In this document: positions 19,546-32,332 of the stretch, piece after piece | Layout of the letters: each line of letters opens with the position of its first letter | How positions within the stretch are numbered: the first letter of the stretch is position 1 | NCBI GenBank assembly: GCA_031763025.1 | Contig: JASSKH010000009.1 | Span: forward strand, 8,621,305 to 8,685,304 | Reading direction: 5' to 3' | DNA: 64,000 nucleotides | DNA from: Macrocystis pyrifera | Taxonomy: Eukaryota > Sar > Phaeophyceae > Laminariales > Laminariaceae | Made by a program: the position numbers and the translations under genes | The notes under the pieces: model-generated | The model's database searches: none | The model's input: only the letters and a program-made list of their open reading frames with translations | Told to the model about the DNA's origin: nothing

Positions 19546-19741
19546 CCTACCCAAACTTCCTTCTGTTTCTTTGTTCGTGATTAGCCACCTACCGTGCGCT
19601 GTGTTGTCTCACCCAAACTTGCTTCGTACTGGTAAATTTTAGTCGTGCGTGGCCGCGCACGCAGAGAAAACTGACTCAACAACTGGAGACAGTGGCAGCT
19701 CGCTCGTGATTGGGCATTAGTGGTCCCGTTCCGGACAGCAG

Positions 19742-20019
19742 TGTTATGATACTGCTTTGTATGAGGTTGAAAGCCCGGTAGTTACATGGATTCAGGCACT
19801 GGGAACGTATCTGTAGTACTTGAAAGGCGTATCTTAGGTGGAAAACCACAGGTTTTCCAGCGACGCACGAGCTTGGTCTCAATCTCCGCGTGCACGAAAG
19901 GAATTAAACTGCTCTTCTTCTATCTCTAAGCAAACATCACATGTGAGTACCAACGAGTACCGACTTGATAGGCAAAGCTTTCCAGGGATACAAAGTATCC
20001 CGCATGCTTGATCTTAACA
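19742..20019 (+). repeat. Gypsy 5' LTR
   Basis: 278 bp with TGTTA/TAACA termini, directly followed by a primer-binding-like sequence. The same length as the 3' LTR, with about 10% differences and no indels that I can find. Confidence 0.92.
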
Positions 20020-20139: not shown

Positions 20140-22488
20140 ATGAAAACTCAAGAGGTGGGAGGGTCTGCTTCCCCTCACGGTGGCCAAGCCACTGAGACCC
20201 AGGGCCCCTCAGTGCTCCACCGCCCAAGGCCCTTCGATGCGGATAGAGCGTCTTGTACAACAGACCAACAAGAGGAGCACGAGTCTAGGCACGAGCCCCA
20301 TGAGAACGACGTGGATCGAGCGCCTTGTACAACAGACAATGAGGAGAAAGAGCTTCGACCAGAGCCCCCTGACGGGGCCCGAGCAGCCTCCGAAAGCCTC
20401 ATCCAACACCCCTTCCGTGCCTCGCTCGGCTGAGCGAGCTCTGCCGTCCAAGAAAACTGGACGCCCCCGCTCCTTAGAGCGCGTGACGCGCGTGATGAGC
20501 CAGGCCTTGGATCTTGCAGCTTTGACTCCCCACTCGTGCCCTCTGCCGTCCAAGCCACCTGGAAGACCTAGCTCCGCTGAGCGCGTACCCAGCCAGCCCG
20601 CGAGCTAGCTGCGTCTGCTCCGGGCTGGAGCACGTCGGACAAACCTGGACGCAGCGCTCTCCATGCAACCCAGCTGCGCTCTTCGCCGTCGGGTCTACCT
20701 GCTTCTGGGCCAGATGAGAGAGTATATCTGAGACTGTTTTTTCGCCTCGCATCCCACTGTTGTCTGACTCTGCCCGTACTCGTAGGATGGCCACGGGTGA
20801 TGCTGCCACTCGTGAATTTGTTTCCGTGCCGCCGCCACACGATGACACACTGGATTTCAGTGTTGAGCCTGCTACCTGCGCTGCTCTAGCTACAAACAGA
20901 GATCCTGGAAATTACAGTACTGCTTCAAGTTTTCATGCTGCTGTTAGAGGGAGCGCTACGGCCGCTCGTGAAATTCGTCCCAACCCTCGCCCACAAGACG
21001 GCACACTGGATTTCAGTATCGCGCCCGTTTTGCCCGCTGCTGTAACCACCCACGCCGATTCCGCTGGAAATTCCACTACTGATGCGAGTTCTCATGCTGC
21101 TGTTAGAGAGAGCGCTACGGCCGCTCGTGAAAATTTGCCGCCCCTCGCCCAGAAGACGGCACGCTGGATTTCAGTATTGCGCCCGCTTTGCCCACTGCCG
21201 TAGCCACCCACGCCGATTCCGCTGGAATTCCACTGCTGCTGCGAGCTTTCATGCTGCTGATAGAGGGAGTGCTACGGCCGCTCGTGATTTGTTTCCCGCC
21301 CCTCGCCCACAAGACGACACACTGAATTTCAGTACTGCGCCCGCTTTGCCCGCTGCGGTAGCCACCCGCGACGATTTTGCTGAGAATGCTCGTGCTGATG
21401 CGAGTTTTAATACTGACGTTAGAAGGGACGAAATTTTTAATAGGCCCTCCAGTACCGGAGTGCCCGCTGCTGTAGCCACCCGCGACGATTCTGCTGAGAA
21501 TTCTTGTGCTGATGCGAGTTTTAATACTGCTGTTAGAGGGGGCGATGCTTTTAATAGGCCCTCCAGTAGCCGAGACGTATCAAAACCAACCACACTTGCT
21601 GCTAGTACACGCACAAACCGCGACGACCGCCCTTCTATCGCGACACCTTCTGTGGTCGATGCTCGTCCCCCCAGCGCTCGTAGCGCTCGCCGTATGGCGC
21701 GCAACGCCTTGATCCCTGCTGTCCAGGTTGCTGAGCACGAGCCGCGGCTATTGCCTCCGCTGCTTCTGCGCTCCACGACCCTGAGAACCGCGGAATCTCG
21801 CTCCCCCCCCCTGCCCCGGCACCTTCCCCTGGTCCGATATATTGCGAGCGTCCCCGTCACACCATGTCACGGACGGAAAATACTCGGGAGGAGGCATCCC
21901 GCCCCGCCAGATCTATCAGCGGGCTGAGGACGTACGGCTCCCCTCCCTCGTCGGGACAAAGGACCCTCAAGCTCCCGGACCCCACGTCTCTGGAGGCCGA
22001 TGTGAACTACGAATACACGGATTCGGAGGACGCGCGGATGGCGGTCGCGGAGGACGAGCGGCTGGCAGCTGGGGAGGACGCGCGCCTGGCGGCTCCGGAA
22101 CCTGGCAGTACACAAGCGTCGCCTCTCTGCCTGCCTGGAGCCTGGACCCCCTCCCTTCCCCGGACAGGGCGGCCATTCTCCAGCACTGGCCCGCCATTTC
22201 AGGGTCCGCCGCGGGTCCGCCGCGGCGCCCGAGCGGGGGAGGAGACTCATCCGGTCATAATGGCGGTCCTGCCGTGAGCAGGGTACAGATCGAGCCGGGG
22301 CCACATCTCGGCGAAACGGGGCTGGGCGTCGGAGAACCTGACGCCAGGGAAATGAAAGCTCGAGCGACGGGCGCACCCGGAGATATCGCCCACGGGGAGA
22401 CGCTTCTCATGCTAATTCTTTCAGCTCCTCCACGGACGGCAGCGGCAAAGCCCCCGTCCCCGAGGTCACAACCAGCTCCAAGAGGCAA
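20140..22488 (+). pseudogene. Gypsy Gag, N-terminal repeat region
   Basis: It probably starts at the ATG at 20140. The first 97 codons contain two copies of a D-R-A-(S/P)-C-T-T-D-(N/Q)-(E/Q)-E unit. After a frame change the sequence runs through Ser/Arg-rich repeats and then at least four units of ~155-160 bp beginning D-D/G-T-L-D/N-F-S (about 20841, 20995, 21152, 21310). Two shorter ~117-bp units follow, with A-T-R-D-D..A-D-A-S-F-N-T (about 21361 and 21478). Further shifted frames (21864-22277, 22277-22504) are acidic, then Pro-rich. This long, repetitive, disordered N-terminus is unusual for Gag. Several frameshifts make the product non-functional as read. Confidence 0.55.
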
Positions 22489-24122
22489 GTGGTTCCCTCG
22501 CTGACTGATGTGATTTCTTCCGGCGCGCTTCTCGGTCGTTTGACCATGCCCGATGACCGCGCCATGCTCATGTCGCCTAACCTTGTTCACGCCCGAACAT
22601 CGGCGATCGACTCCGCCGCCGCTGCCGCCGCGAAAAAGCACACCGCCGACGTTCAACGGGCGTACAAACACCTGGGACTGAAGGATATTTCGCGCATTTC
22701 TGTCCTACCTTTTCCCTCTTCGATCAACCCTTTCGATGCTGCGCAACAACTCACTCGTTCGGTCATGGCCTCCGCTTCTGATATTCTCATGGTGTACAAC
22801 GATGTCAGTCATGAAGGCCTTAGTTCTACTGATTGAATCCCCGGTTGGGAGTACCCTCTCAAGAAATCCTTCGCGTGCGCCATCGCGCCTGAAAAGCCTA
22901 CAGCCCCTCTCACTACCTTGATGGATGATTTGTTTAGACAGGTGTCGCGCGCCCTCGTAGCCGGATCGACGGGACCGGAGGCGTTCACGCTCTTCGTGAG
23001 GTTTCTGAGCAACCACTTCGACCGCACCCGACACGGGGGCCAGCTACATCAAAGTGCATCCTTTTGGCGTGCCTAACGGGACCCCCTTTTCCGATTTTAG
23101 TCGTGCATTTCGAGGGTTGGTGTCGGCAGCGACGGGGACTGAGCGTGTTTTGGCAGCGGGGGTAGAGGTTGTTTTGAGGTGGTTCGGATGGCGGTGAACG
23201 AGCAGTGCCCCAGCTTGGTGCCCACGCTGTACCCGGGAGTTTTGGCTACGCGTTCGGCACTTGGACGCCATGTGCTTGGCTTTCGAGACTCTCGCGAATA
23301 ACAAGACACCTGCCATCAACGGCGAAAAATATTTTTATTTGCCTGCTTCTTCGACGGGTGTGCGGTCATCCGCCCCGTCGGGGCCCCGGCCCGCCAATGG
23401 TGGTCGCGGCCAGGGCCGGACGCTTCCCCAGTCGCCTTCTTGGCAGACGGGATCGCGCAATAATCCGCTTGTGATGAATGTCAACAAATCCATCCCTGAC
23501 TGCCTCGACCCGTGGTTTGACACCTCTTCCAATTGCTGATCCCTTGAAGAACACCAACATGCTGAAGTTCACGCCGTTTGCATGTCCATCCAGACCCCTC
23601 TGGAGCGGCCTCCTTTCATCGTCCGCTCGCGCAGCCACCCTCAGCGAAAACCGAGGGCATTGTTTGTACTGCCACGAAGACACACACTCTCTCCGACAGT
23701 GTAGACACCCTTTTCTAAACCTTAGTGGTATCTTAAACCCCGACCTTGGAACGCTCGGCGAGGACGGCGACGTGTTCCACCGTCGGCAAGAACGCACGAT
23801 CAGACACCGCCGCGAGATCAGACACCGCCGCGAGAACAATTCACGACCGAACAAACACAACCAGAAGAAACACAGGTGTCGTCCCGGCCACTCGCGAGGG
23901 CAACATCACGGCCAGGATCAGCAAAACAGACAAGGTGACGGCTACAACACACACGCGGATCGAGGACACCAGCAGTCTGACTCCGGACATCACGGTGGTG
24001 GTTCGACCGCCCCTGCCCCTTCCATCGCAGCTCCCGTTTCGCGGGTTCGCTACGGTGCCTCCCATAACACTGGCAGAAACCCGAACGGACGCCAGCCAGG
24101 CACCTTCCGCGCCGGCAACTGA
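22489..24122 (+). pseudogene. Gypsy Gag, capsid-like part and nucleocapsid zinc knuckle
   Basis: 22489-22836 and its continuation in other frames to about 23540 form a helical, capsid-like stretch (e.g. P-L-T-T-L-M-D-D-L-F-R-Q-V, then T-L-F-V-R-F-L-S-N). The frame from 23478 contains a perfect CX2CX4HX4C knuckle, C-L-Y-C-H-E-D-T-H-S-L-R-Q-C, at 23661-23702. A His/Gln/Arg/Gly-rich tail follows, as expected for a nucleic-acid-binding nucleocapsid. Stops and frameshifts occur near 22836, 23070 and 23540. Confidence 0.7.
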
Positions 24123-25089: not shown

Positions 25090-26110
25090 AGCACATTCCC
25101 CCAAACACACACCCGCAACTGCGGCCACCGACGACTCGGCACCGTCGGTCTTTGACCTTACTCTCGAATATTCAACGGAGCGGGTGGTACTGTTCTGGCA
25201 GCCCCCCTCCTATTTTTCGCAGTGGTCCCCCTCGTCTTTTGTCATCGACGATGTGTCATATTCCTGCGCGGAGCAGTATATGATGCCTGAAAAGGCTCGC
25301 CTTTTTCAGGACCACGACACAGCAGAGCGGATAATGGCCTCGCCAGACCCACGTGAGCACAAACGCCTCGGTCGAGGCGTGCATAACTTCGACTGCGCTA
25401 TCTGGGACCGCGTTCGGGAAGACGCCGTCCTCGCTGGTACTTTTGCCAAATTCTCGCAGAACCCGGCCATGAAGCAGCACCTATTGAGTACTGGCACCAA
25501 ACTGTTGGCTGAAGACAGCCCTTTGGACGTCGTGTGGGGCATCGGTCTCCGGGCAGACGACCCCGAAGCTCGAGACCCCTCTCCGTGGCGTGGGAAAAAC
25601 TTGATCGGGAACGCTCTTGCCGCCGTTCGCGACACCCTCAGCTCAAGTGAGGCCGGGTTGGCATACCCCGCCTCCTCTCATCAATTTCGCACTCCGACCA
25701 GGACTGACAGAATTCCTGAGATTGCACCGGCGTCGCCCCGCCCTTTGGCCGTGGCCCGCGCTTGCCCAGGTCCTCCCTTGGAGTTTTCGATCTATTTTTC
25801 CGACGCGCCGGCTGGTCACTGCCCCGAGGTTTTAGTTGTCGCACCTAGTGTCGATCCTCCTTCGCGCTGCCAGAACACGGTCCCTGCCTCGTCGGGGGCA
25901 CCATTACCCTCGATGACGCCTCTTTTACAACCAAAATTGCAATTCACAGCGGAGCTGGCGTTCTTGCACCTTTTGGTTCCGTGGCGCTTCTTGACGCTGG
26001 CTCCCCACAGACTTTCATCCGATGAGATGTTTTGGGTCGCATGCACTCGGTTGGTGCGGCATCCCTCGCATGCGAGCAGAAATGCGCCCCTCGTTCTTGG
26101 GGAGGGGTAA
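25090..26110 (+). CDS. NADAR (YbiA-like) domain embedded in the gypsy polyprotein
   Basis: This frame opens after a TAA near 25087 and runs intact to 26110. About 152 residues (25184-25640) read as a whole NADAR/YbiA domain: W-S-P-S-S-F-V-I-D-D-V-S-Y-S-C-A-E-Q-Y-M near the N-terminus, then K-A-R-L-F-Q-D, H-K-R-L-G-R-G-V, I-W-D-R-V-R, K-F-S-Q-N-P-A-M, L-L-S-T-G-T-K-L-L, V-V-W-G-I-G-L and W-R-G-K-N-L-I-G-N-A-L. Family members (E. coli YbiA, bifunctional riboflavin enzymes, eukaryotic proteins) act on N-glycosidic bonds of riboflavin intermediates or are linked to ADP-ribose metabolism. No stop or shift interrupts the domain, while Gag and Pol around it are broken. The ~150 residues after it are unrecognised. 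It overlaps the protease frame. The role in the element is unknown. Confidence 0.85.
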
Positions 26111-26330
26111 GCGAAATGGCCCCTCTGAAGAGTTCGACGAGTGTGCGCCCGTCCAATTTTTTCGAAAAAATGAGCCTACTTGCTCCCTCGCAGTTTGGGT
26201 CTGCGTGGTTCCCCCCTCAGTGATGCAGCATGCAGTACTATTGGGACGTGACAGCTAGATGCGTTTTAATTGCCGCTCTTACCGCTCTCTGCCACCTCGG
26301 CCGTCTGATCAACGCGTTTTTGGCGAGCTG
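25870..26330 (+). pseudogene. Gypsy aspartic protease (retropepsin-like), broken
   Basis: In a frame different from the NADAR ORF, the sequence reads G-T-I-T-L-D-D-A-S-F-T, then V-A-L-L-D-A-G-S-P-Q-T-F-I. This is the retropepsin active site with D-A-G instead of the usual D-T/S-G. An in-frame TGA follows (about 26022). After a frame change the second conserved motif V-L-L-G-R-D-S appears (about 26237-26255), with a TAG at 26256 where a Trp is usual, and then F-N-C-R-S-Y. It would cleave the Gag-Pol polyprotein if intact. Confidence 0.7.
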
Positions 26331-26353
26331 GAGTTCACCACGCCCCGACAGGC

Positions 26354-27754
26354 ATGTCCGTGTACGCCATCGACCCCGCCGCTTCGGGTGGAGGCTTCCA
26401 TCTACGCTACGATGGCGCGGCAGGGGTTACCCTGTCCGACAATCTTCAACTGCTTGCTGTTCACTTTGTTCTGAGCGATGGATCCCCGGTCCTCACTGGA
26501 CACTACTTGGTCGACATGATGCCCCAGCCCGACCTACCCTCGGTCGGGGAGCACTTCGTCTCCGCCGGACGACAGGTTCTTCCCCTCGTTGGAGTGGCGG
26601 CTCTCGAGTCGGGGGACATCCTCGGCGTCGCCCACGCCCCACTGCTGAGCGTCTCGCTGGACGTTTTGCAGCAGGACAACCGAGCCCCCAGCCTTCCCTC
26701 CGGACTATCTGAGGTGTTTCCGGTCTCACCAGTTACTGCTGCCCCCCTCGCAGCTCCAGCCTCGCCCTCGCCTGCACTGTTTTCGCGTTTAAGCCCAGCA
26801 CAGCGCGCTTCGTTCCTGAGCGTCTGGGCACGCTTGCCGTTACATCTGTGGGACGTGGGTTTTGACCTTCACGGCACGGGCTGGACCCATGAGGCCATCG
26901 AACAGCTGGGGGACGTTGTCTGCGAATTTCCTGACGTTTTCTCGAAGTCCAAGTCTGATTTAGGTTCCTGCTCGTTGATGTCTTTCGTGATTTCGGTCCC
27001 GGAAGGAAGCGCTCCTGTCACGTCCAGGCCGCACCGCATCAACCCCATCCTGGCCAAGGAAGTGGAGGCCACCTTGGATCAGTACCTAGCGGCAGGCCTG
27101 ATCCAGCACTCGACCTCTCCGTACTCGAGCCCGTTGGTGATCATCTCGAAGAAGTCTGGAGGCGTTCGGATCACCGTGAACTACAAACTCTACCAGATCA
27201 GCAACGTCAGCCAGCTGCATATTCCTCGCGTGGACCAAGTCTTCGACTCCCAGGGGAAGGGACGGGTGTTTTTCCTCTTCGATTTGGTCTCCTCGTTCCA
27301 CCAGATTACCGCGTACAAGGACACCGTCCCTCTCACAGCGCTTTTCACTCCCACAGGCCTCTACGAGTGGCTCGTCATGACCCAAGGCAGCAGTGCTTTG
27401 CCCGGCTGGTTCGTCAAAGTGATTAATGAAGTCATTAAAGGTCTGTCACAGGTGGTGGCCTACCTTGATGATGTGATCGTTTTCGACTCTGATCTGACGG
27501 CTCACGTCAAGACGATAAGAGCCCTCTTCGAACGCCTGCGCAAACACAACCTCAAGCTCTCCCCCTCGAAGGCTAGCCTCGGCGCCACGGACGCCAATTT
27601 TCTGGGCCACTCCATTTCCCTCGCGGGTATAAACCCTAATGCGGAACAGTTTTCGGCTTTGATGAAAATGTCTAGGCCCAAGAACCTCAAGCAGGTCCGC
27701 GCCCTGATGCGCGGCGTAGGATATTATCGCAAATTCTTTGTCCGACCTGTCTAA
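26354..27754 (+). CDS. Gypsy reverse transcriptase
   Basis: A 466-codon open frame. After a linker, the RT region shows F-P-D-V-F-S-K-S, P-H-R-I-N-P, E-V-E-A-T-L-D-Q-Y-L-A-A-G-L-I, S-P-Y-S-S-P-L-V-I-I-S-K-K-S-G-G-V-R, F-L-F-D-L-V-S-S-F-H-Q (first catalytic Asp kept), T-P-T-G-L-Y-E-W and the catalytic A-Y-L-D-D-V-I-V-F (YLDD at 27461-27472). The thumb/connection S-P-S-K-A..F-L-G-H and Y-Y-R-K-F follow. Some consensus positions differ (F-D-L-V-S-S-F). The frame is lost at about 27740 by a one-base shift, not at a natural end. It makes cDNA from element RNA. Confidence 0.88.
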   Translation: MSVYAIDPAASGGGFHLRYDGAAGVTLSDNLQLLAVHFVLSDGSPVLTGHYLVDMMPQPDLPSVGEHFVSAGRQVLPLVGVAALESGDILGVAHAPLLSVSLDVLQQDNRAPSLPSGLSEVFPVSPVTAAPLAAPASPSPALFSRLSPAQRASFLSVWARLPLHLWDVGFDLHGTGWTHEAIEQLGDVVCEFPDVFSKSKSDLGSCSLMSFVISVPEGSAPVTSRPHRINPILAKEVEATLDQYLAAGLIQHSTSPYSSPLVIISKKSGGVRITVNYKLYQISNVSQLHIPRVDQVFDSQGKGRVFFLFDLVSSFHQITAYKDTVPLTALFTPTGLYEWLVMTQGSSALPGWFVKVINEVIKGLSQVVAYLDDVIVFDSDLTAHVKTIRALFERLRKHNLKLSPSKASLGATDANFLGHSISLAGINPNAEQFSALMKMSRPKNLKQVRALMRGVGYYRKFFVRPV

Positions 27755-28501
27755 ACGGATACTTCTTCTCACCGCCCTTCCCCTAAAGGGGGTCAAGTAC
27801 GTCTTTACGCCGGTATGGAAGTTATCGTCCGCCAGATCCTCGCCGCTTCCCCACCGATTTTAGTCTTCCCTGACTAGGACGCCGTGGCCGACGGCTCCCG
27901 CCCCTTCCACGAGTACTGCGACGCCTGCATCGACGGTTTTGGTGCCGCGCTCGAACAAGAACAACCGGACGGCTCGGTACGGCCCATTACTTAGATCAGC
28001 CGCGGTACCCTCGATTCCGAGAGGCACTGGACACCGTTGGACCTGGCAGCTGGAAGCATTGTCTGGGCCATCAAACGACTCCGAGGTTACCTGTGCAGCA
28101 CGAAGTTTGAAATATGTTCGGACCACAAAGAACTTGAGAGCATCGGCAAAGTAGGGGACCATAACGCACGAGTCCAGCGGTGGCTCGAGTTCCTCACCGC
28201 GTTCGACTACACCCTCCAGTACCGTAAGGGCAGCGCCAATGGAAATGCTGACTTTCTCTCCCGCTTGCCGGAGCCCGCCACAGAAAACGACCGCAGTGGG
28301 TCTAGCACCCCCACTCCCGTCGAGAACGGTAGTATCTTCCTCATCCGAGCCTGCGGGCTTCGCACTCGCTCCTCGCTGACCCCCGGTGTCGGTTTGGGTG
28401 GGCTGGTGCCCCCGCACCGAAAGTGCCGTCTTGGGTGGGCTACCTTTCACCTCTTCGGATTTTCGCGATTTTCGCACACACGGGCCACGTATGAGGATTG
28501 A
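27755..28501 (+). pseudogene. Gypsy RNase H (RT-associated), two in-frame stops
   Basis: One frame carries I-L-V-F-P-D, a TAG (27875-27877), A-V-A-D-G-S-R-P-F, Y-C-D-A-C-I-D-G-F-G-A-A-L (catalytic Asp region), another TAG (27992-27994), then E-R-H-W, G-Y-L-C-S, C-S-D-H-K-E-L and N-G-N-A-D-F-L-S-R-L. All are hallmarks of the gypsy RNase H domain that removes template RNA. The first TAG stands where the family usually has Trp. Confidence 0.85.
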
Positions 28502-28861
28502 CGACCTCTCTGCTCCTTCGAGAAGATTCGTCGCTCGTGTATCTGCTTCCGTCGCCACCGTCGACCGCCGTCCTGGCTTGAGGGGTTTTCACCCCCCGCC
28601 AACGCCGCTTTCGCTTCGGTTTTTGTCGTACCCTCCGGGGGCGACCAGGGGTCCGCAGAAGACCCCGCTGCAGCGATAATTATCGCCCAGCGCGCTCCTC
28701 CCACGACGAGAACTTTACAGGGCGAAGATTCAGCCGCGAGCACTGCTCCGGCCGCGTTTTCCCTGTCAGGCCAGGGTTCTGCAGAGGCACCCGCTGCTGC
28801 AACGATTGTCGCCCAGCGCGCTCCTCCCCCGACGAGCACTTTACAAGGAGAAGATTCCGCT

Positions 28862-30681
28862 GTGATCACTGATCCGGCCGCGTCTGCCCCATTGCCGCCT
28901 GGTAACCCGGCGCCTCTGAATGTTTTGCCGTCTTCAGGCCGCATCTCAACTCGAACGCACCGACGAATAGCCGCCGCCGCTGGCATCGCGCCGCCTGCTG
29001 TTGATTATGGCTTCGGACCCGGCGGGGCCCATAGACCATCACTTTGGCGTGCTATCACCTTGCCGCGAGCCCCACGGCCGCGACCGCCTGCACCCGTCGT
29101 TATGGTCCCGGCTCCTGCCACCTCGTCGATCCCGACGGCACCCATCCCGTCCGACCGCGACCGCACCGAGCCCGTGGAAACTCCTCTTTTACGGCGTCTG
29201 CCGCCAACTGATGCCCCGCCTGTCACCACGACCGACTTGGACGCCCTCGGCGCAGCTGCCGAATTTCAGTTGGGTGATTCCGCAGCGCGCTATTCGCACG
29301 CCGTCTGGGCTCGGGAACAACACGCCAAGCCTGCGTGCAACGCCGCCATGCGCTACATAGCCCTTGGCCGGCCGGATGTTTTGCCCGCCGACTTCTTGTC
29401 GTGTTTCCCACCCCACCAGCACCCTCCCTTTTCGGAGGTTCAGGAACTGACTAACAAAGGCCGCTTGTACACCACCGACGCGGGCATCGGTCTACTTGTC
29501 CGAAAGGCGCCCCCCCCCCCTGCGTCGGATACGCAACGCCCGGTGGGTCGTACGGCCTGTTTATTGAACGACGAGCCTATTCGCATTTATGTTCCGCTGC
29601 TCATGCGCCCCTGGGTCATGCAGGCTTGCCATTCCACGGATTCTTGCCACCTACGAACCGTGCGCACCCTATATAGGCTCGAACTTTTCTGCTGGTGGAT
29701 TGGTATGAACATCTGCACCCGTGGTGGCTACGAAACTGCTTGAAGTGTCAAGCACGGAAAACGTCGAGGAAGACCGTCCGGTAGTCCTCCATCACGTTGC
29801 CCTTTCCAGAAGGGCCCGGCATCGCCGTCAGCATTGACTATTTCGGCCCTCTCCCGGTGACGCCTCGAGGTAATACCTACATATTTCTTTTCACTGATCG
29901 TTTCGGCCGCCGAGCCGACATGTACACCGTCACAGCGGCAGAGTTCACCGCTGAGGGCACAACTAACATTCCCATCAACCGGGGGTATAACTTTCTTTGG
30001 GGGTGCCCGCGCAGCATCCTCTCGGAAAACGGCCTCCAGTTCTGCTCCAACCTTTCGCACGCCATAAATCAGCTTCTCGGGGTTCGAAAAATTGCCACCA
30101 GCTCCTACGACTCAAACGCCAACGGTGAGGCGGAACGTGTAAACCACACGATGGCCCAAATGCTGGTAATGGTCGTCAACGAGCTCCAAAACAACTGGGA
30201 TGAACAGCTCCCTCACGTCGAATTTGCGTACAACAATTCCGTCCGCGCCACCATGGGTCTGGCTCCCAACGAGGTAAATATGGGTCGGCTGCCATGCCTC
30301 CCTATATTCGAGCGTGCTGAAGTCGCCGACCACCAGAGCTTGACCCGCGATCACCTTGCCTACTTCGACTTGGCGACGGACCGTCAGCAGCGCGCGTACG
30401 ATACCGTTCGCGAACACCACGCCCTCACTGTTGCTCGCGTGAATCGCCGCAACTCCGCCCTCTCCGACGCTCTGCGTCCGGTGACGTTGGCGGTTGGGTG
30501 TGGGTGTAAAATACGGCGGCCACCATCCGCCAGCGCGCGAAACCCGACACGGACGGCAAGGTCCTCAAGGCCAAACTCTCGCTCAACTGGACGAACCCCT
30601 ACAAAGTTCTCGCAGTTGGCCTCTGCTCCTCAGCGGACACCCCGGACGGATCTCCTCTCGGAGCAAAGCTCCTGTATTTGA
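28862..30681 (+). pseudogene. Gypsy integrase
   Basis: 28862-29743 is a Pro/Ala-rich linker ending in the H2C2 zinc-binding start (A-C-H-S-T-D-S-C-H, about 29620-29650). A frameshift near 29715 precedes the C-x-x-C pair (N-C-L-K-C-Q-A-R). 29797-30681 holds the core: first Asp in S-I-D-Y-F-G (29836-29838), L-S-E-N-G-L-Q-F where the second catalytic Asp reads Glu (codon 30025-30027), and Glu in N-G-E-A-E-R-V-N. F-A-Y-N-N-S and R-R-N-S-A-L-S-D-A-L follow. After about 30490 the frame shifts again (L-A-V-G, A-K-L-L-Y-L-N-L, V-S-V-Q-R-C-K-P-C-A-N). Integrase inserts the cDNA into host DNA. Confidence 0.88.
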
Positions 30682-30779: not shown

Positions 30780-31480
30780 GAGTAGTTGTCGGCGGGGTTG
30801 ACGCAATACGTGCTCAATAACTTCTCCAAGAAGTCCCCCCCGTACCACGTCACCGATGACGACGTTTCGACCCCTCTTCAACGACTCGAAGTGGAAAAGA
30901 TTACTGGACATCAATCGGTTAGAGGTCGAGGTGGCGCCATCGCGGTGATGTACGAGACGCATTGAACAGGACTATCCCGTCCATCCTGGGAACGGGAAAC
31001 GGACCTTCAGCTTTCTCGCCACGCAATTTTGCGCTACTCTGCCGGCACCCCGAACCAACACCGCCAAACAAACTGCCTGTACTGCCGAATGAGAATAGGC
31101 GCGGCACAACGGGAGCTTTATCGGAGTAAGGGCAAGCGGTTTCTGGCACCCGACTATGGCTGCGTATCGCACGGCCAATTGGCTCCGCCGATACAGCAAC
31201 AATGTGCTTCCCTACGAGGACTACTTTGGGTACAAGGGCGACGACGGTCTGTGGTGACTGGGTAAAATCAGCGCAACTATGCCAACGGATGGAGTATATT
31301 AGGTTCGATTTTTAGACGATCCGGGACCGATCAAGCTTCCTCTTTCTCCGGCGCGCTACACGACTTCGACGAGAGCTGTACGAGGTTCTTGGTGTCTGCA
31401 AATTCACTTGGCTAGCGCGTTTGCACGGGGGGTCCTGCGTAACGTCGATGAATCTCGAGGCGCCGCCGTGGATAGCCTAT
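30780..31480 (+). pseudogene. Gypsy chromodomain-like C-terminus
   Basis: After a stop at about 30783 the sequence reads R-L-E-V-E-K-I-T-G-H..S-V-R-G-R-G-G, M-Y-E-T-H, a TGA (30963-30965) and G-L-S-R-P-S-W-E-R-E, the layout of a chromodomain-type targeting tail. Further on come R-M-R-I-G-A-A-Q-R-E-L and K-G-D-D-G-L-W followed by TGA (31255-31257), then L-G-K-I-S, and F-L-D-D-P-G-P-I-K-L-P-L-S. The minus-strand remnant at 15.85-17.35 kb has the same series of blocks. Such tails can guide integration to chromatin marks; that is inference here. Confidence 0.65.
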
Positions 31481-32054: not shown

Positions 32055-32332
32055 TGTTATGATACTGCTTTGTATGAGGTTGAAAGCCCGGTAATCACCT
32101 GGGTTCAAGAACTGGGAACGTATTTGTAGTATTTGGAAGGCGTATCTTAGGTGGAAAACCAGGGGTGTTGAAGAGACGCGCGAGCTTGGTCTCAGTCTCC
32201 GCGTGCACGAAAGGAATAAAACTGCTCTTCTTCTATCTCTAAACAAACATCTCACGTGAGTACCAACAAGTACCGACTTAGTAAGCAAACCTGTCCAGGG
32301 ATACAAAGTGTCCCGCATGGTTGATCTTAACA
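32055..32332 (+). repeat. Gypsy 3' LTR
   Basis: 278 bp, TGTTATGATA...CTTAACA, collinear with 19742-20019. Confidence 0.92.

What the first reader, a model, noticed from the sequence alone, without database searches (positions are those of the whole stretch)
25090..26110. A complete NADAR/YbiA-like domain inside a Ty3/gypsy polyprotein
Between the Gag zinc knuckle (23661) and the protease motif (about 25990), the element encodes an uninterrupted ~152-residue domain. It carries the NADAR series of motifs in order (Y-F-S-Q-W..P-S-S-F, C-A-E-Q-Y-M, K-R-L-G-R, W-D-R-V-R, K-F-S-Q-N-P, V-V-W-G-I-G, W-R-G-K-N-L-I-G). NADAR proteins process N-glycosidic bonds and are linked to NAD/ADP-ribose metabolism. 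I know of no standard gypsy architecture with this domain. It stays open while Gag, protease, RNase H and integrase are broken. Hypotheses: capture of a host gene by the element; a function against ADP-ribosylation-based host defence; or action on nucleotide/riboflavin pools during cDNA synthesis. All three are inference.
Basis: partly seen in the sequence, partly recalled or inferred. Interest (0 to 1): 0.85.

Follow-up and report, generated by a model that had tools for sequence, protein, structure and literature searches.

The report
NADAR enzyme inside kelp retrotransposon Pol
A family of jumping genes in what is very probably giant kelp carries, inside its replication polyprotein, a bacterial-type enzyme domain that in other organisms strips ADP-ribose from guanine bases; the same arrangement was reported in 2025 in another brown alga, so this copy extends a known oddity rather than being the first.

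Summary
Confirmed: window 25193-25639 encodes a NADAR domain (PF08719, E 3.9e-48) inside a 12.6-kb Ty3/gypsy element with 90%-identical LTRs. It is not a one-off: the genome holds at least 119 matches to the ORF, and three families (NADARs 47-53% identical) carry it upstream of RT. Family-1 dN/dS is 0.485, RT 0.490; off-frame 0.98 and 1.22. Of 13 ADP-ribose-contact positions of the Phytophthora NADAR, 12 are kept (one as Phe, one Val/Ile), with the YbiA-type glutamate. The domain groups with bacterial and phage YbiA proteins, only one eukaryotic protein being in the tree; host-gene capture is not supported but not excluded. Assembly statistics match Macrocystis pyrifera. [quoted passage not shown] Added here: a second genome, family diversity, a selection test, active-site evidence. 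Best mechanism (inferred, untested): removal of ADP-ribose from guanine in the element's RNA or cDNA. Verdict: new member of a known kind.

The parts
19742..20019 (+). 5' LTR (TG...CA), 90% identical to the 3' LTR
   Evidence: direct repeat D1 (19740-20019), ends read by eye
20905..21568 (.). tandem repeats (158 bp x 3, 114 bp x 1.9) in the leader between LTR and Gag
   Evidence: Tandem Repeats Finder
23478..24122 (+). Gag ORF with CX2CX4HX4C zinc knuckle at 23661
   Evidence: ORF; motif; no Pfam hit
25091..26110 (+). open reading frame holding the NADAR domain
25193..25639 (+). NADAR domain (PF08719, YbiA subfamily); contact residues at codons 25271 (Glu), 25292 (Lys), 25361 (Lys), 25370-25375 (Gly-Arg), 25403 (Trp), 25415 (Arg), 25511 (Glu), 25526 (Asp), 25535 (Trp)
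   Evidence: profile; codons; alignment to 8bau; fold
25970..26070 (+). approximate place of the aspartic protease motif, placed from other copies; the motif search found none in the window at this place
   Evidence: DTGS 801-803 bases after the NADAR start in 8 of 8 family-1 copies scanned; no such match near here in the window
26309..27754 (+). Pol piece with reverse transcriptase (RVT_1 at 27212-27616)
   Evidence: PF00078 E 5.1e-20
27995..28501 (+). RNase H piece
   Evidence: PF17917 E 5e-14
28502..29743 (+). ORF ending in the integrase zinc-binding piece
   Evidence: PF17921 E 0.0024 (below the curated cut-off)
29785..30681 (+). integrase core piece
   Evidence: PF00665 E 0.0017 (below cut-off); copy L019 E 5.5e-8, above cut-off
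30966..31130 (+). place of a putative chromodomain-like segment
   Evidence: resemblance by eye to the L019 segment with PF00385 E 0.0031, below cut-off; the window's own segment has no Chromo hit
32055..32332 (+). 3' LTR

Best explanation
The window holds one broken copy of a Ty3/gypsy LTR retrotransposon whose lineage took up a bacterial/phage-type YbiA NADAR domain into Pol, upstream of protease and RT, and has kept it as a working part. Shown: domain identity, fold, position, spread over many copies and at least three families, purifying selection like that on RT, conserved ADP-ribose-binding residues. Inferred: the bacterial/phage source (weakly supported trees); that the domain is carried with Pol in the virus-like particle; and that it hydrolyses ADP-ribose from guanine (or a related N-glycosidic ADP-ribose adduct) on the element's RNA or cDNA, clearing lesions that would stop reverse transcription or mark it for restriction.
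For: PF08719 E 3.9e-48. AlphaFold model of the window domain pLDDT 88.3, pTM 0.83; best PDB match 8bau, Phytophthora NADAR with ADP-ribose, E 1.7e-10, TM 0.81; second YbiA 2b3w. At least 119 genome matches to the ORF, 152 to the domain. NADAR upstream of RT in 20 of 20 family-1 loci fetched at 9-10 kb, 6 of 6 family-2 loci and 2 of 2 family-3 loci; the first 26 were chosen by NADAR match, the last two by RT match. NADAR, RT and RNase H in one frame in L027. Chosen by RT: 79 of the first 116 RT rows (137 rows) have a NADAR listed 1.1-2.6 kb upstream; the other 37 are undetermined because lists are capped; in reverse 39 of the top 60 NADAR rows have a listed RT. dN/dS NADAR 0.485 (95% codon bootstrap 0.339-0.706), RT 0.490, IN 0.473, Gag 0.457; off-frame NADAR 0.977 and 1.222. 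Twelve of 13 ADPr-contact positions named in PMC11543638 (section 12) are kept in representatives of all three families, counting Tyr/Phe and Val/Ile as kept; D86 is not. Biochemistry: Phytophthora NADAR reverses guanine ADP-ribosylation in DNA (PMC11543638, passages); all NADARs in a tested panel, with E. coli C7 NADAR, E. coli YbiA and a T4 phage NADAR among those compared, reversed it on RNA (PMC11833690, passages).
Against: No assay of this domain. NADAR substrates are not settled: YbiA acts on riboflavin intermediates (PMC11543638), and PMC9503650 (passages) argues that viral NADARs might prefer soluble ADP-ribose derivatives. D86 of the Phytophthora site is Cys, Glu or Gln here. No guanine-ADP-ribosylating enzyme was shown in the host. 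Within-family dN/dS mixes selection with neutral decay, and loci for it were chosen by NADAR match, which favours intact domains. Within family 1 the contact sites are hardly more conserved than other sites. Some RT copies in long open frames have no listed NADAR beside them (e.g. C161:219088).
Confidence: 0.5

Rival explanations
1. Counter-defence: the host or a co-infecting virus marks foreign RNA/cDNA or proteins by ADP-ribosylation, and the element's NADAR removes the mark or destroys an ADP-ribose signal, as proposed for NADAR and Macro domains in RNA-virus polyproteins.
For: PMC9503650 (passages): RNA-virus NADAR and Macro domains sit in polyproteins with the polymerase, are largely mutually exclusive in animal RNA viruses, and are argued to counter host ADP-ribosylation. 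Same kind of placement here.
Against: No ADP-ribosyltransferase-based immunity was shown in this host; searches for DarT-like genes did not complete. Pairwise dN/dS shows no excess of replacement changes, though single sites were not tested.
Confidence: 0.3
2. The domain has lost catalysis and serves as a structural or RNA-binding part of Pol.
For: Contact residue D86 is changed; no activity has been shown; within family 1 contact sites are hardly more conserved than others.
Against: E43, K50, E125, D130, W133 and the GR pair are kept in representatives of three families whose NADARs are only 47-53% identical.
Confidence: 0.1
3. Action on riboflavin/nucleotide pools (YbiA-like metabolism).
For: E. 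coli YbiA has such an activity (cited in PMC11543638).
Against: No known link between a Pol-embedded enzyme and riboflavin synthesis (my knowledge); the same YbiA also removes ADP-ribose from guanosine RNA (PMC11833690).
Confidence: 0.05
4. One-off insertion of a host gene fragment, decaying neutrally.
For: The window copy is broken and its LTRs differ by 10%.
Against: At least 119 matches, three families, dN/dS 0.485 against 0.98-1.22 off frame.
Confidence: 0.01

Closest known systems
NADAR-bearing Gypsy lineage of Ectocarpus, e.g. Gypsy-12_Ec32 (PMC12477816, passages)
   Same: [quoted passage not shown] blastp relatives of the domain almost exclusively bacterial; putative C-terminal chromodomain after integrase.
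   Different: Another genome (very probably Macrocystis, another order; orders recalled). Sequences of the Ectocarpus families were not on hand, so common descent was not tested. Here three families, selection and active-site tests are added. The paper calls the role unclear and suggests processing of RNA intermediates.
Phytophthora nicotianae NADAR (PDB 8bau) and E. coli YbiA (2b3w)
   Same: Fold (TM 0.81 and 0.76); E43, K50, E125, D130, W133 of 8bau kept.
   Different: Not part of a retroelement polyprotein; 31% and 23% identity in the structural alignment; contact residue D86 changed.
NADAR domains in polyproteins of animal RNA viruses (PMC9503650, passages)
   Same: NADAR placed in a replication polyprotein.
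   Different: Positive-strand RNA viruses with an RNA-dependent RNA polymerase; no LTRs, reverse transcriptase or integrase (recalled).
Tx1 LINEs of Crassostrea gigas with NADAR-like ORF1 (named in PMC12477816)
   Same: Retrotransposon with a YbiA-family NADAR.
   Different: Non-LTR element, domain in ORF1; described as divergent hits; not examined here.

Membership tests
NADAR (PF08719), YbiA subfamily | profile match above the curated cut-off over the whole domain | tested here: met
   164.2 bits against 35.1, profile 2-162 of 163
NADAR (PF08719), YbiA subfamily | YbiA-type glutamate (E125 of P. nicotianae), not Asp or His | tested here: met
   Glu at codon 25511; Glu in 28 of 28 family-1 rows and 6 of 6 family-2 rows (duplicates of nine loci left out); 2 of 2 family-3 rows by gapped alignment
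NADAR (PF08719), YbiA subfamily | NADAR fold | tested here: met
   predicted model matches 8bau and 2b3w
NADAR (PF08719), YbiA subfamily | hydrolysis of guanine-linked ADP-ribose or another N-glycosidic bond | not testable with these tools
   needs a bench assay
Ty3/gypsy LTR retrotransposon | two LTRs with TG...CA ends | tested here: met
Ty3/gypsy LTR retrotransposon | order PR-RT-RNase H-integrase in Pol | tested here: met
   PF00078, PF17917, PF17921, PF00665 in this order; the two integrase profiles are below cut-off in the window, rve above cut-off in L019; PR motif in other copies
Ty3/gypsy LTR retrotransposon | target-site duplication | tested here: inconclusive
   flanks GCAG / GTAG, 3 of 4 alike by eye
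[quoted passage not shown]
   upstream of RT in 28 of 28 loci: 20 family 1, 6 family 2 and 2 family 3
Ectocarpus NADAR-Gypsy lineage (Gypsy-12_Ec32) | domain carried by all families of the lineage | tested here: inconclusive
   26 of those 28 loci were chosen by NADAR match; chosen by RT, 79 of 116 rows have a listed NADAR and 37 are undetermined
Ectocarpus NADAR-Gypsy lineage (Gypsy-12_Ec32) | C-terminal chromodomain after integrase | tested here: inconclusive
   PF00385 E 0.0031, 17.8 bits against a cut-off of 25.1, in L019; none in the window piece
Ectocarpus NADAR-Gypsy lineage (Gypsy-12_Ec32) | RT groups with the Ectocarpus families in a tree | not testable with these tools
   Ectocarpus element sequences not held

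The most novel reading that the evidence does not exclude
Brown algae mark retroelement or viral nucleic acid by guanine ADP-ribosylation as an undiscovered form of immunity, and this gypsy lineage took up a bacterial or phage antitoxin-type NADAR as a counter-measure, keeping it since before Ectocarpus and kelps parted.
Probability: 0.15. Interest if true: 0.85.

Novelty: new member of a known kind. Interest (0 to 1): 0.42.

Why it matters
The physiological role of NADARs outside DarT operons and in eukaryotes is described as unclear (PMC11125620, discussion). A retrotransposon lineage with many copies that keeps nearly all of the known ADP-ribose site under selection suggests that ADP-ribose adducts matter to reverse transcription or to its restriction in brown algae, and gives a natural system in which to look for ADP-ribosylated RNA or cDNA. 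It also extends the published Ectocarpus case to a second brown alga, which would make the uptake old if the two lineages prove to be one.

Tried and rejected
Host-gene capture: searching the own genome with the Phytophthora NADAR letters gave 150 scored places of 796 candidates at 35-40% identity, none standing out; five that I compared by eye lie about 1.7 kb upstream of RT rows.

Independent captures by the families: in the free trees the gypsy NADARs need two changes; the best tree with all ten gypsy rows held together was slightly better than the free one (p-AU 0.595). One capture is neither shown nor excluded. The trees held 17 of the 20 bacterial loci, 1 of the 2 loci, 5 of the 665 phage records and one eukaryotic protein; one search warns that long branches (8bau and one phage row) meet.

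'Only some copies carry the domain': 61 of the first 116 RT rows lacked a listed NADAR at first. A domain-only search paired 18 more and a DNA search 6 more, with NADAR stretches of 454-458 bases instead of 456, i.e. frameshifted. 37 of 116 stay open; some of them (e.g. C161:219088 and C204:2370797) lie in long open frames and match L027 from just after the domain on, so copies without an intact NADAR may exist. The reverse check falls short in the same way (39 of 60, which was given the first 60 rows), so list caps and decay may explain it, but this is not proved.

Early indexing slip: one search read family-3 residues without allowing for a one-residue gap and printed A, L, G at E125, D130, W133; with a gapped alignment shows E, D, W.

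The IQ-TREE codon model printed no omega and was not used. The viral fold library was never reached. No date was computed from the LTR difference, as no rate was at hand.

Full report
What is there. The ORF at 25091-26110 holds a complete NADAR domain at 25193-25639 (PF08719, E 3.9e-48). It lies between the Gag zinc knuckle at 23661 and RT, RNase H and integrase pieces downstream, inside an element bounded by 90%-identical LTRs at 19742-20019 and 32055-32332, about 12.6 kb in all. The copy is broken: the Gag, NADAR, RT, RNase H and integrase pieces lie in separate ORFs. Flanks resemble a 4-base target duplication in 3 of 4 letters only, by eye.

Host. The window's assembly has 537,376,219 bases in 223 contigs and a largest contig seen of 26.5 Mb. 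PMC10498591 (passages) lists for Macrocystis pyrifera 537 Mb, 223 contigs, largest 26 Mb. This is an identification by assembly statistics, not by marker genes.

It is a regular part of a gypsy lineage. The ORF has at least 119 matches in the genome, the domain at least 152. In 20 of 20 family-1 loci fetched at 9-10 kb the domain sits upstream of RT, and in the 16 of 20 with a Gag match, downstream of Gag; these loci were chosen by their NADAR match. Two more families were found: family 2 (6 loci; NADAR 47-48% identical to the window; RT 69% over 280 residues in L041 and 74% over 170 in L040) and family 3 (2 loci, chosen by RT; NADAR 51-52%, RT 70-71%); in 8 of 8 of these NADAR is upstream of RT. 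The protease motif lies between the two in 8 of 8 family-1 loci scanned, 2 of 4 family-2 loci scanned and 2 of 2 family-3 loci. L027 has NADAR, RT and RNase H in one 1,696-codon frame. Chosen by RT, 79 of the first 116 RT rows have a NADAR listed upstream; 37 are undetermined under the list caps. Of the 14 RT rows at 71-72% identity, six have a NADAR beside them when I compare by eye; the rest were not seen.

Selection. Over 21 family-1 copies (210 pairs) dN/dS by Nei-Gojobori counts is 0.485 for NADAR (95% codon bootstrap 0.339-0.706), 0.490 for RT, 0.473 for integrase (19 copies), 0.457 for Gag (17 copies), 0.638 for the protease link and 0.572 (0.355-0.997) for the 69 codons after NADAR. 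Read in the two wrong frames, NADAR gives 0.977 and 1.222, so mutation bias does not make the low value. Copies were picked by NADAR match, mostly without stops, which favours intact domains; RT in the same copies is a partial control.

Active site. PMC11543638 (section 12) names the residues of the Phytophthora NADAR that contact ADP-ribose. In a gapped alignment the window, L027 (family 1), L037 (family 2), both family-3 loci and a bacterial relative keep E43, K50, K75, G78, R79, W89, R93, E125, D130 and W133; V81 is Ile in L065; Y84 is Phe; D86 is changed in all six. Across 28 family-1 rows E125, K75, G78, R79 and W133 do not vary, E43 is kept in 25 of 28, K50 in 27 of 28 (nine duplicate loci left out). 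In family 1 alone the contact sites are hardly more conserved than the rest (mean deviating fraction 0.036 against 0.042), so the stronger argument is the conservation between families. The AlphaFold model (pLDDT 88.3, 17-row alignment) matches 8bau best (TM 0.81).

Origin. One scan of bacterial and archaeal genomes returned 20 relatives, the best at 50% identity; 665 phage records match, the best at 53%. In trees of 35 and 34 proteins the gypsy NADARs fall among bacterial and phage YbiA proteins, away from Phytophthora; most branches are weakly supported, the Phytophthora row is a long branch, and it is the only eukaryotic row besides the elements. A single gypsy clade is not rejected (p-AU 0.595). 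Uptake from a bacterium or phage fits better than capture of a stramenopile gene, on this thin sampling; the Ectocarpus paper suggests horizontal transfer from its blastp hits.

Known or new. PMC12477816 (Genome Biology 2025; [quoted passage not shown] Full-text searches for 'NADAR domain' with 'gypsy' and 'YbiA' with 'retrotransposon' each returned that paper alone; 'NADAR' with 'LTR retrotransposon' and 'polyprotein' returned it and one fungal genome paper that I did not open. I saw no report for kelps in the 20 of 104 papers listed, the 10 of 80 listed, or the Macrocystis genome paper, whose main text has no 'NADAR'. So the architecture is known; the second genome, the family diversity, the selection test and the active-site reading are added here.

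How it most likely works. NADARs are hydrolases of guanine-linked ADP-ribose in DNA (PMC11543638) and RNA (PMC11833690); the essential residues are described as conserved across the superfamily (PMC11125620, discussion). A Pol-borne NADAR would be next to the element's RNA and cDNA in the particle. I infer that it removes ADP-ribose adducts from guanine there, either as repair or as counter-defence like that proposed for RNA-virus polyproteins (PMC9503650, passages). None of this was tested; the identity, conservation and placement of the domain are what is shown. I hold those at about 0.97 and the guanine-ADP-ribose substrate at about 0.5.

Noticed in passing
window 20905-21568 and 28645-28883: Tandem repeats of 158, 114 and 126 bp inside the element, in the leader before Gag and between RNase H and integrase.
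   Followed up: no
L019 7935-9221: After integrase a chromodomain-like segment (PF00385 E 0.0031, below cut-off), followed by a Trp/Tyr-rich stretch that looks Tudor- or Agenet-like by eye (no Pfam hit); the Ectocarpus paper reports a Tudor domain in another Gypsy lineage.
   Followed up: partly
L009-L028, 200-700 bases after the NADAR domain: Frame relation between the NADAR tail and protease/RT differs between copies: in 9 of 20 the tail aligns with the window's in one frame, in 11 of 20 the frame changes about 70 codons after the domain. Inherited indels or a different ORF layout.
   Followed up: no
G000 C207:3553608, C212:1417319 and similar rows: A further group of NADAR matches (39% to Phytophthora NADAR, query 3-115) in open frames of up to 2,349 codons; possibly a fourth family.
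   Followed up: no
phage hits H1, H7, H13: Phage NADAR proteins are annotated as GTP cyclohydrolase in several records, probably carried over from a riboflavin-pathway label.
   Followed up: no
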